A stretch of DNA of 35,587 bases. It comes from an uncultured Alistipes sp. (lineage in GTDB: Bacteria; Bacteroidota; Bacteroidia; Bacteroidales; Rikenellaceae). Position numbers and translations under genes: made by a program. Of this stretch, positions 1,168-5,206 are shown in pieces; position 1 is the stretch's first letter; every line of letters begins with the position of its first letter. The stretch is from assembly GCA_944320985.1 (NCBI GenBank), contig CALUJN010000069.1, positions 1-35,587 of the forward strand, given 5' to 3'. The notes beneath the pieces are model-generated. The model saw only the letters and a program-made list of their open reading frames with translations. It did not search any database and had not been told where the DNA came from.

Positions 1168-2199
1168 TCACTCTACCTCCCAGGTGGCACCCGATCGCAG
1201 CAGATCATCCACACAGTGGATCTTGCTCGAGGCCTTGACCTCCTCGACCTGGCGTTCCACGGCGCGGTCGTAGACGGCATCGTCCTCCACGGCGCGGATC
1301 ACACCCAGAGCGACCGGATAGTCGGGGTATTTCATGCCGGCGAGCATCATGTGCAGCGTCGTGTCCTTTTCGTGTGCGTCGTGCGTCAGCACGTCGTCCA
1401 GCGTATAGCCGTCCTGGCCCACCGTTACGACCTTGAGCTTCATGTTTTCGAAGACCAGACCCTTTTCGCGGTTGGCCCCGAAGAGCATCTTCTCGCCGTG
1501 GCGCAACACGACCGTATGTTCGGCCCGCGTAGCCTTGTCACCGGCATATGCAGCGTGGGTCTTGTCGTTGAAGATCACGCAGTTCTGCAATGCCTCGACC
1601 ACCGACATGCCCTTGTGTTTGGCCGCCTCCACAAGGCACTCCTTCGTGAGCTGCACCTCCATGTCGACCGTACGGGCGAAGAACGTGCCTTTGGCCCCGA
1701 TGACCAGCTCGCCCGGGTTGAAGGGCTTCTCGACCGTACCGTAAGGCGACGTCTTGGTGATTTTTCCCAACTTCGACGTGGGGGAGTATTGGCCTTTCGT
1801 CAGACCGTAGATCTCGTTGTTGAAGAGGATGACGTTCAGGTCGACATTGCGGCGGATGGCGTGGATGAAGTGATTGCCGCCGATGGCCAGCGAGTCGCCG
1901 TCGCCGGTTGCCACCCAGACCGAAAGGCGCGGGTTGGCCACTTTGACGCCCGTAGCCACGGCATTGGCGCGTCCGTGTACGGAGTGGAAACCGTAGGTCT
2001 TCATGTAGTAGATGAAGCGCGACGAGCAGCCGATTCCCGACACGAAGGTGAAGAGGTTGTGGGGGGTATCGAGCGCGTCGGCCACTTCGGGCAGTGCGCG
2101 CTGTACGGCGTTCAGGATGGCGTGGTCGCCGCATCCGGGGCACCAGCGTACCTCCTGGTCGCTTTTGAAATCCGCAGGGGTGTATTTGTAGTCTGCCAT
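1168..2199 (-). CDS. korB: 2-oxoglutarate:ferredoxin oxidoreductase, beta subunit
   Basis: This is the thiamine-pyrophosphate-binding beta subunit of a 2-oxoacid:ferredoxin oxidoreductase. With KorA it oxidatively decarboxylates 2-oxoglutarate (or a related 2-oxoacid) to the acyl-CoA and reduces ferredoxin in the cytoplasm. Visible motifs are CPGCGDH (20-26), IGCSSR (56-61), the TPP/Mg motif GDGDS (99-103) and NNEIYGLTKGQYSPTS (from 127). The length of 343 residues is typical. Its start lies 4 nt after the korA stop, so the two form one operon. No 4Fe-4S ferredoxin-type subunit was seen next to it, which is common for two-subunit Kor enzymes. Substrate choice (2-oxoglutarate rather than pyruvate or branched-chain acids) is by family resemblance only. 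Confidence 0.93.
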   Translation of the reverse strand: MADYKYTPADFKSDQEVRWCPGCGDHAILNAVQRALPEVADALDTPHNLFTFVSGIGCSSRFIYYMKTYGFHSVHGRANAVATGVKVANPRLSVWVATGDGDSLAIGGNHFIHAIRRNVDLNVILFNNEIYGLTKGQYSPTSKLGKITKTSPYGTVEKPFNPGELVIGAKGTFFARTVDMEVQLTKECLVEAAKHKGMSVVEALQNCVIFNDKTHAAYAGDKATRAEHTVVLRHGEKMLFGANREKGLVFENMKLKVVTVGQDGYTLDDVLTHDAHEKDTTLHMMLAGMKYPDYPVALGVIRAVEDDAVYDRAVERQVEEVKASSKIHCVDDLLRSGATWEVE

Positions 2200-2203
2200 G
2201 GCG

Positions 2204-4048
2204 TTATTTCAGTAAGGATTCGAATTTTTCTTTCAGCTCGACCACCGTGAAGGGCTGGCCTTCGCACTTGTTGTACTGTTCGTATTGGAACTCCTGGAAG
2301 TTCTGGCGCAGGTAGTTGGCGAACTGTCCTTCGTTGAGCTCGCAGACGACGATCCGGCGGAATCGTGCGAAGATTTCGCGTACGCCGTGCGGCAGCGGGT
2401 TGATGTAGTTGAAGTGGCAGAGCGAGACCTTGTGGCCCTCTTTGCGCATCTCGTCGACGGCATTCTGGAGATGTCCGCGTGTGCCGCCCCATCCTACGAC
2501 GAGCAGATCGCCCTCCTCGTCGCCCCAGACCGTCTGTGCAGGGATGTCGTCGATCACCTTGGCGACTTTTGCCGCACGCGTGTCGACCATCTTCTGGTGG
2601 TTGGCCGGATCGTGCGAGATGCTGCCCTTGACGGCATCCTTTTCGAGGCCTCCGACGCGGTGTTCGAGTCCGACTTTTCCGGGGAATGCCCAGCCGCGTG
2701 CGAGGTTTTCGTTCCGCACGTAGGGCATGAATCCGCCCTCGGGGGCCTTGTCGACGATCGGCGGGCAGATCGTCGGATAGTCTTTCATCGAGGGGATGCG
2801 CCAGGGTTCGGAACCGTTGGCGATGAAGCCGTCGGAGAGCAGCACCACGGGGGTCATGTGCTCCATGGCCAGACGTCCGGCTTCGAATGCGTAGTGGAAG
2901 CAGTCGCTGGGCGACGAGGCTGCCACGACGATCACCGGGCACTCTCCGTTACGGCCGTAGAGAGCCTGCGCCAGGTCGCTCTGTTCGGTTTTGGTCGGGA
3001 GACCCGTCGAGGGGCCGCCGCGCTGTACGTCGACGACGACCAGCGGCAGTTCGGTCATGACGGCCAGTCCGAGGGCTTCGCTCTTGAGCGAGAGACCGGG
3101 TCCGGAGGTGGTCGTTACGGCGAAGTTGCCGGCGAAGGCGGCGCCGATGGCCGTACAGATTCCGGCGATTTCGTCTTCGGCCTGCACGGTCTTCACGCCG
3201 AGGTCCTTTCGTTTGGCCAGCTCTTCGAGGATGACCGTCGCGGGGGTGATGGGGTACGAACCGCAGAAGAGCGGCAGCCCGGCCTTTTCGGCGGCGGCAC
3301 AGAGTCCCCATGCCGTGGCGACGTTTCCGCTGATCGAGCGGTAGGTTCCCTTCTCACGCGGAGCCGGAGCCACGGTGTAGTTGTTTGCGAACTGGTGGGT
3401 ATTTGCGGCGTAGTTGTACCCGGCCTTGATGGCGAGTTTGTTGGCCTCGGCCACGACGGGGTTTTTCTTGGCGAATTTCGAGTCGAGGTAGCGGAGAGCA
3501 TACTCTTCGGGACGGTCGAAGAGCCAGAAACAGATGCCCAGAGCGAACATGTTCTTGCACTTCGTAACGGCCTTGTTGTCGAGGCCGGTCTCCTTGAGTG
3601 CCTCGCGGGTCATGGAGGTGATGTCAGGTACGACGACGTTGTACTCGTCGAGTTTGAGTTCAGCCAGCGGGTCGAGGGTTGCGAATCCGGCCTTTTTGAG
3701 GTGTTCTTCCGTAATCGAATCCCCGTCGATGATGACCGTGGCGCCGGGTTTGAGCCATTTCCGGTTTGCCTTGAGCGCCGCGGGGTTCATGGCTACCAGG
3801 ACGTCGCAATAGTCTCCGGGGTTGAGTTCTCGGTGGTCGCCGTATCATTAAAAAAAAAAGGAGACGCCGGCTACGGTACCTTGCGGAGCGCGGATTTCGG
3901 CCGGATAGTCGGGGAATGTCGAGATTCCGTTACCCAGCAGAGCCGACGTGTCGGAAAAGAGCGTGCCCGTGAGCTGCATTCCGTCGCCCGAATCCCCGGA
4001 GAATCGAATGACCACATCCTGCAACTCCCTCACTTTGGTTTGTTCCAT
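2204..4048 (-). CDS. korA: 2-oxoacid:ferredoxin oxidoreductase, fused gamma-alpha subunit; reading frame broken by a probable sequencing artefact
   Basis: The natural gene starts at 4048 and reads in one frame to 2204 (614 codons). Residues 1-63 ([28 protein letters not shown]) are the start of the gamma domain that Bacteroidetes fuse to the alpha domain. The rest carries the alpha-domain signature [11 protein letters not shown] and [12 protein letters not shown]. Codons 67-68 are TAA TGA (3845-3850), inside an 18-nt block (3842-3859) where homologues, from memory, read roughly G-F-Q-V-H-I. The frame is kept on both sides: after the block it continues [19 protein letters not shown]. That block plus the next 14 nt equals the Illumina P5 surface oligo, so the stops are probably not real. 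An automatic annotation would start at 3790 and lose the first 86 residues. Operon with korB. Confidence 0.85.
3828..3859 (-). other. Illumina P5 flow-cell oligo sequence embedded in korA (probable artefact)
   Basis: Read on the minus strand, 3859-3850 is exactly ten T, 3849-3842 is AATGATAC and 3841-3828 is GGCGACCACCGAGA. Together these are the first 32 nt of the surface-grafted P5 oligo as I recall it. Identity ends exactly where the oligo has its cleavable U. The last 14 nt also make sense as korA codons (GDHRE), so they are probably genomic. Only the upstream 18 nt appear foreign, and they replace the native bases without changing length. Confidence 0.85.
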
Positions 4049-4348: not shown

Positions 4349-4379
4349 AAAAAGGCTGTCCCGTCGGGACAGCCTTTTT
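4349..4379 (-). terminator. Rho-independent terminator of kduD
   Basis: A perfect 14-bp stem (4349-4362 with 4366-4379) has core GGCTGTCCC, a GTC loop and A/T arms, giving a T-run on both strands. It lies 32 nt after the kduD stop. No plus-strand gene precedes it, so it serves kduD. Confidence 0.9.
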
Positions 4380-4411: not shown

Positions 4412-5206
4412 CTACTGCGGCTGCTTGCCGATGTAGGCCAGAATACCGCCGTCGACGTAGAGAATGTGACCGTTGACGAAGTCCGAGGCCTCCGAAGCGA
4501 GGAACACGGCCGGACCCATCAGATCTTCGGGCGTACCCCAACGGGCAGCCGGCGTCTTGGCCACGATGAACGAATCGAACGGATGGCGGGAACCGTCCGG
4601 CTGACGCTCGCGCAGCGGAGCGGTCTGCGGCGTGGCGATGTAGCCGGGGCCGATGCCGTTGCACTGGATGTTGTATTCGCCGTACTCGGAAGCGATGTTG
4701 CGGGTGAGCATCTTCAGACCGCCCTTCGCGGCAGCGTAGGCCGATACGGTCTCACGGCCCAACTCGGACATCATCGAGCAGATGTTGATGATCTTGCCGT
4801 GTCCCTTCTTGATCATCGAGGGGATGACGGCCTTCGAGACGATGAACGGACCGTTGAGGTCGATGTCGATCACCTGGCGGAAATCCTTGGCGCTCATCTC
4901 GACCATCGGGATGCGCTTGATGATTCCGGCGTTGTTCACAAGGATGTCAATCACGCCGACCTCCTTTTCGATCTGTGCGACCATGGCATTGACCTGCTCC
5001 TCGTTGGTTACGTCGCAGACGTATCCTTTGGCGTCGATGCCCTCTTCCTTATAAGCGGCGAGACCTTTGTCGACGAGTTCCTGTTTGATGTCGTTGAAGA
5101 CGATCTTGGCACCCTGGCGTGCAAAAGCGGTGGCCAGCGCGAAGCCGATTCCGTAGGAGGCGCCCGTTACGAGGGCTACCTTGCCTTCCAGTGAAAAGTT
5201 TACCAT
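4412..5206 (-). CDS. kduD: 2-dehydro-3-deoxy-D-gluconate 5-dehydrogenase (SDR family)
   Basis: A classical short-chain dehydrogenase of 264 residues. The Rossmann motif TGASYGIG is at 14-21 and NNAG at 91-94. The catalytic set is Ser144 (ICSMMS), Tyr157 and Lys161 (YAAAK). In the unsaturated-uronate pathway, KduD reduces 2,5-diketo-3-deoxygluconate to 2-keto-3-deoxygluconate with NAD(P)H in the cytoplasm. Homologues are often labelled gluconate 5-dehydrogenase, and sequence alone does not separate the two. The kduI gene 127 nt upstream on the same strand decides for KduD. It is likely co-transcribed with kduI, since no promoter box was found in the gap and a strong terminator follows. Confidence 0.9.
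   Translation of the reverse strand: MVNFSLEGKVALVTGASYGIGFALATAFARQGAKIVFNDIKQELVDKGLAAYKEEGIDAKGYVCDVTNEEQVNAMVAQIEKEVGVIDILVNNAGIIKRIPMVEMSAKDFRQVIDIDLNGPFIVSKAVIPSMIKKGHGKIINICSMMSELGRETVSAYAAAKGGLKMLTRNIASEYGEYNIQCNGIGPGYIATPQTAPLRERQPDGSRHPFDSFIVAKTPAARWGTPEDLMGPAVFLASEASDFVNGHILYVDGGILAYIGKQPQ

What the first reader, a model, noticed from the sequence alone, without database searches (positions are those of the whole stretch)
3828..3859. Illumina P5 flow-cell oligo embedded in korA creates two false stop codons
On the minus strand, ten T, then AATGATAC, then GGCGACCACCGAGA are the first 32 nt of the surface-grafted P5 oligo including its T10 tail, and identity ends exactly at the cleavable U. 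The korA frame is open on both sides, and the length of the foreign 18 nt equals the six codons expected there. The final 14 nt also fit korA coding, so a genomic 14-nt match probably primed or mis-joined with the cleaved P5 oligo, and the error passed into the consensus. A core metabolic gene would be wrongly called truncated or a pseudogene.
Basis: partly seen in the sequence, partly recalled or inferred. Interest (0 to 1): 0.85.

Follow-up and report, generated by a model that had tools for sequence, protein, structure and literature searches.

The report
Sequencing-machine oligo inside a metabolic gene
A 32-letter stretch in a bacterial gene matches the DNA anchor of an Illumina sequencing chip; it most likely replaced 18 true letters in the assembly and makes a healthy metabolic gene look broken.

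Summary
Confirmed: on the minus strand, window 3828-3859 reads exactly ten T and then AATGATACGGCGACCACCGAGA, the grafted Illumina P5 oligo up to its cleavable U. It puts TAA TGA at codons 67-68 of a 2-oxoacid:acceptor oxidoreductase alpha subunit (korA-type). All 29 same-genus copies aligned have 15 nt between the two gene pieces, exactly as here, so T10-AATGATAC overwrites 18 nt without changing length. The remaining 14 nt fit the gene: 8 of 29 relatives match 13 of 14.

Two collection scans (one capped) gave 199 further hits, mostly adapter at contig ends. Of all 200, 16 are internal: oligo identity ends at 39 in 13 (intact 3' end), at 32 in the window and L114 (cleaved 3' end), at 34 in one. 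Relatives of four other internal cases mostly show length-neutral replacement; for three they also partly match the oligo's 3' end.

Best explanation: mispriming by cleaved P5 at paired-end turnaround, fixed by a mapping-type consensus step. The oligo origin is close to certain; the steps are inferred, as no reads were available. It is an artefact, not biology, but a searchable class of assembly error.

The parts
3828..3859 (-). T10 + first 22 nt of the Illumina grafted P5 oligo (32 nt, the USER-cleaved form)
   Evidence: exact match; the same 32-mer is printed as an immobilised primer of a home-made chip in PMC11123353 (passages); that Illumina's own oligo has this form is recalled
3850..3859 (-). 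T10 surface linker of the oligo (exactly ten T)
   Evidence: 13 of 17 internal cases have exactly ten T, the others 11, 11, 12 and 13
3842..3849 (-). AATGATAC; with the T10 it makes the 18 nt that overwrite genomic sequence
   Evidence: the 18-nt block matches relatives at 4-9 of 18 positions against 74-92% identity outside the 32 nt (some of these alignments hold gaps)
3828..3841 (-). GGCGACCACCGAGA: 3' end of cleaved P5 and also plausible korA coding (G-D-H-R-E), the presumed mispriming site
   Evidence: 8 of 29 relatives match 13 of 14, the two closest among them
3845..3850 (-). false stop codons TAA TGA (codons 67 and 68)
2204..4048 (-). 2-oxoacid:acceptor oxidoreductase subunit alpha gene interrupted by the artefact (63 aa piece 3860-4048, 546 aa piece 2207-3844)
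   Evidence: TIGR03710 on both pieces; PF01558, PF01855, PF17147 on the long piece
1168..2199 (-). next gene downstream, TPP-binding beta-subunit-like protein, open frame of 343 aa
   Evidence: PF02775; ORF list

Best explanation
The stretch is a piece of the Illumina flow cell, not of the genome. At the paired-end turnaround the surface carries USER-cleaved P5 (T10 + 22 nt, 3' end GAGA) whose 3' phosphate has been removed. Its last 14 nt annealed to korA template inside a cluster and were extended. The resulting strands begin with T10-AATGATAC instead of the true 18 nt and lack the Read 1 primer site, so only Read 2 sees them: it runs from korA through P5' into A10 and ends. A consensus or mismatch-correction step that laid these reads on the contig without clipping then overwrote 18 true bases, and true sequence resumes where the oligo ends. 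Shown: oligo identity, exact length neutrality, the fit of the 14 nt to korA, and the same pattern in independent assemblies. Inferred: cleaved rather than intact oligo, mispriming as the physical step, Read 2 only, and the consensus step.
For: Exact 32-mer with ten T. Zero length change against 29 of 29 relatives, with the clear disagreement confined to 18 nt. The two pieces are 100% and 96% identical in protein to L196, so the gene has not decayed. Of 200 hits (window plus loci) 16 are internal; identity ends at 39 in 13, at 32 in the window and L114, at 34 in L140. Relatives given for L062, L093, L107 and L114 show net zero length change in 2 of 4, 5 of 5, 8 of 8 (some with compensating gaps) and one gapless alignment. 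Relatives of L062, L093 and L107 partly match the oligo's 3' end. The open frame keeps register strictly in 9 of 16 internal cases, ties in 4 and does not in 3. PMC10963267 (passages): the 3' phosphate on grafted P5 is removed and P5 is extended at paired-end turnaround. PMC11123353 (passages): the same 32-mer used as immobilised primer on a home-made chip.
Against: No reads to show Read 2 origin or strand. A second exact GGCGACCACCGAGA in the same genome (C15:18516) carries no artefact, so the site alone is not enough. L114's relative matches only 4 of 14 in the seed block. Two of four L062 relatives, the more distant ones, show net length change within 60 nt, -3 and +15. Three of 16 internal cases do not keep register. 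L107 has two letters and L114 one inside the oligo part that are not the oligo's and are not explained. That Illumina's own grafted oligo carries T10 and a U at this place is recalled.
Confidence: 0.88

Rival explanations
1. Same origin, but the intact P5 oligo misprimed during bridge amplification, and the last seven letters (TCTACAC) were lost or outvoted in the consensus.
For: 13 of 16 internal cases end at the intact 3' end. The next seven korA letters (ACTCAAC) match TCTACAC at 4 of 7, including the last two. L107 and L114 show that single oligo letters can differ in a consensus.
Against: In those 13 cases TCTACAC is kept whole; here none of its mismatching letters appear, and the closest relatives read on as the window does.
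Confidence: 0.1
2. Ordinary adapter read-through of a short insert, joined into a contig by mis-assembly.
For: The commonest context of this string: 174 of 200 hits are followed by Read 1 or Nextera adapter.
Against: No sequencing-primer or index sequence follows; korA continues on both sides with exact spacing. The hit is 3.8 kb from the start of contig C69.
Confidence: 0.01
3. Real mutation or real insertion: korA is a true pseudogene or is read through two stops.
For: Only that it stands in the assembly.
Against: The 32 letters equal a synthetic oligo with its T10 linker; the string occurs in records of unrelated taxa; the rest of korA is 96-100% identical in protein to L196.
Confidence: 0.005

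Closest known systems
Illumina adapter contamination of assemblies (read-through of short inserts)
   Same: Foreign letters come from P5; T10 is visible because the read reaches the surface end (inference).
   Different: Read-through carries Read 1 or Nextera primer sequence after P5 (174 of 200 hits) and mostly sits near contig ends. Here the oligo alone sits inside a gene and overwrites equal length.
PCR or sequencing-primer mispriming artefacts
   Same: A primer 3' end anneals to a partial genomic match and its 5' part replaces genome.
   Different: The primer is the surface-bound oligo, as T10 suggests, which library primers lack (recalled). In the passages I saw, PMC3163567 mentions mispriming for mixed sequencing primers (its one occurrence).

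Membership tests
Illumina grafted P5 oligo, USER-cleaved form | T10 linker followed by AATGATACGGCGACCACCGAGA | tested here: met
   exact over 32 nt
Illumina grafted P5 oligo, USER-cleaved form | identity stops at the U (position 33) | tested here: met
   next base is A, and the sequence continues as in the closest relatives
Surface-oligo mispriming artefact | oligo 3' end matches the true genome at the site | tested here: inconclusive
Surface-oligo mispriming artefact | length-neutral replacement up to the 5' end of the T10 | tested here: met
   15 nt between pieces in 29 of 29 relatives, by extrapolation over one codon in 7 of them
Surface-oligo mispriming artefact | seen only in Read 2 and on one strand | not testable with these tools
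   no reads held
Adapter read-through contamination | Read 1 primer or Nextera sequence after P5, at a contig end | tested here: not met
   korA follows directly; internal
2-oxoacid:acceptor oxidoreductase subunit alpha (TIGR03710) | family score above cut-off | tested here: met
   546-aa piece 575.9 bits, cut-off 482.75; 63-aa piece 44 bits, below cut-off as a fragment

The most novel reading that the evidence does not exclude
Surface oligos of the flow cell write themselves into the interior of published short-read assemblies as a distinct class of silent, length-neutral substitution with two fixed end points, one per physical state of the oligo (intact, cleaved). It breaks genes without changing contig length, so length-based checks miss it, and the end point tells at which chemistry step the error arose.
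Probability: 0.7. Interest if true: 0.5.

Novelty: not a real feature. Interest (0 to 1): 0.4.

Why it matters
A core gene that is probably intact would be annotated as a 528-aa truncated protein or a pseudogene. The signature (T10-AATGATAC or T10-CAAGCAGAAGACG inside a contig, no sequencing-primer sequence after it) is short and can be screened for in any assembly. The string was found in 2 of 180 same-genus genomes, one of them only as contig-end adapter, and in 2 of 395 genomes of a phylum sample, the window included, both internal. So it is rare per genome but recurrent.

Tried and rejected
Record names of loci were not in the box files. Megablast of the 32-mer against phages, plasmids and E. 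coli genomes gave no match; I hold this uninformative, because the T-run may be masked and 22 letters are below the 28-base word. I hoped for a chemical mark, G to T at the (position recalled) 8-oxoG of P7: 4 of 122 show it, but 7 of 122 show changes at the next A, so it is weak. No P7 string with up to two mismatches lies in the own genome. Literature: nine searches ran; I saw listings, and passages of PMC11123353, PMC3163567, PMC10963267 and PMC4655332. In what I saw, none described surface-oligo mispriming in assemblies; the library lacks most subscription papers. The genome-contig scan stopped at 120 stretches, and the 80 rows shown come largely from a few MAG projects, so counts are not prevalence. 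In one search I dropped 10 of 26 non-adapter hits for having under 150 nt on a side (L066, which ends at 32, among them); L150 was counted as adapter. In one search I gave 4 loci for L062, 5 of 11 for L093 and 8 of 11 for L107; by the coordinates the ones left out for L093 and L107 end before the site.

Full report
What is there. On the minus strand, positions 3859 to 3828 read TTTTTTTTTT AATGATAC GGCGACCACCGAGA. The 22-mer has one hit in the window with up to three mismatches and none in 100 shuffles; T10AATGATACGGCG occurs once in the 2.66 Mb genome. The base after it is A where P5 has the cleavable U (recalled; the T10 + 22 nt form is printed as an immobilised primer of a home-made chip in PMC11123353, passages).

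The gene. Pieces 3860-4048 (63 aa) and 2207-3844 (546 aa) both match TIGR03710, 2-oxoacid:acceptor oxidoreductase subunit alpha; the long piece holds PF01558, PF01855 and PF17147, and the next gene has PF02775. From ATG at 4048 the foreign codons 64-69 read FFF**Y. The mechanical ORF list gives 2204-3790, 528 aa.

Relatives. 57 of 61 genomes searched in the genus, the own one included, gave a DNA match to the region. Loci were held for 29 of the 56 matching relatives, the best-scoring ones, and these 29 were aligned. In 29 of 29 exactly 15 nt separate the two pieces, coding GFQVH (28) or GFQLH (1); in 7 of them the start of the second piece is extrapolated by one codon. In the DNA alignments, some with gaps, the 18-nt block agrees with relatives at 4-9 of 18 positions while the surroundings are 74-92% identical. 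The following 14 nt agree at 13 of 14 in 8 of 29, the two closest relatives included; the one difference is in the Arg codon, and the window's letter there could be native or from the oligo. Thus T10-AATGATAC overwrites 18 nt with no change of length, and the 3' 14 nt lie on a natural near-match.

The same string elsewhere. Searches (genome contigs, stopped at 120 stretches; viral contigs, 73 stretches) gave 126 and 73 hits. With the window this makes 200; 174 are followed by Read 1 or Nextera adapter, 26 are not, and 16 of these have at least 150 nt held on both sides. Among the 16, identity ends at 39 in 13 (L107 with two mismatches), at 32 in the window and L114 (one mismatch), and at 34 in L140. 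L066, dropped for its short flank, also ends at 32. Position 39 is the 3' end of the intact oligo and 32 that of the cleaved one (recalled). L140's two extra letters could be chance.

Independent replacement tests. For L093, 5 of 5 relatives given show net zero length change; for L107, 8 of 8 (both sets with compensating gaps); for L062, 2 of 4, the two more distant ones showing -3 and +15 within 60 nt. Relatives carry partial matches to the oligo's 3' end (L362 13 of the last 15; L387 GATCTACAC). For L114 one relative aligns without gaps across the site, but matches the 14-nt block at only 4 of 14. Open reading frames keep register strictly in 9 of 16 internal cases, tie in 4, and do not in 3 (L058, L104, L173).

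Mechanism. The grafted P5 bears a 3' phosphate that is removed, and it is extended, at paired-end turnaround (PMC10963267, passages). A cleaved P5 that anneals inside an insert would make a strand starting with T10-AATGATAC and lacking the Read 1 site, so only Read 2 would show it, ending in A10. Length neutrality then needs a consensus step that overlays these reads on the contig without clipping; a graph assembler alone would leave a dead end. These last steps are inference.

Limits. A second exact 14-mer in the same genome is clean, so local depth or chemistry must matter too. Of 2 of 180 same-genus genomes with the string, G007's is a contig-end Nextera adapter, which leaves the window as the one internal case. 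In the phylum sample 2 of 395 had the string, the window and L397, the latter internal and ending at 39.

Verdict. It is an artefact; its interest lies in the searchable, two-ended, length-neutral signature.

Noticed in passing
L286:7361-7394 (+): Internal T10-P7 in a viral contig, frame kept, with G to T at the recalled 8-oxoG position; 4 of 122 P7 hits share this change, too few to be conclusive.
   Followed up: partly
L355, L357, L360 (near 1507): One genome (G224) has three places, identical over the 140 nt printed, with T6-P5 (intact end) inside; perhaps an artefact carried into a repeat.
   Followed up: no
L150:4483-4504 (-): Internal T10-P5 followed by a Nextera-like index and a partial transposon end, then other sequence of the viral contig.
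   Followed up: no
loci from DRR09300x and ERR712384 MAGs: Many contigs of these MAG sets end in untrimmed P5 adapter with often T-rich noise on its outer side.
   Followed up: no
window 4349-4379: Hairpin AAAAAGGCTGTCCC-GTC-GGGACAGCCTTTTT upstream of korA and past the end of the ORF at 4412-5206 (-); looks like a bidirectional intrinsic terminator (read by eye).
   Followed up: no
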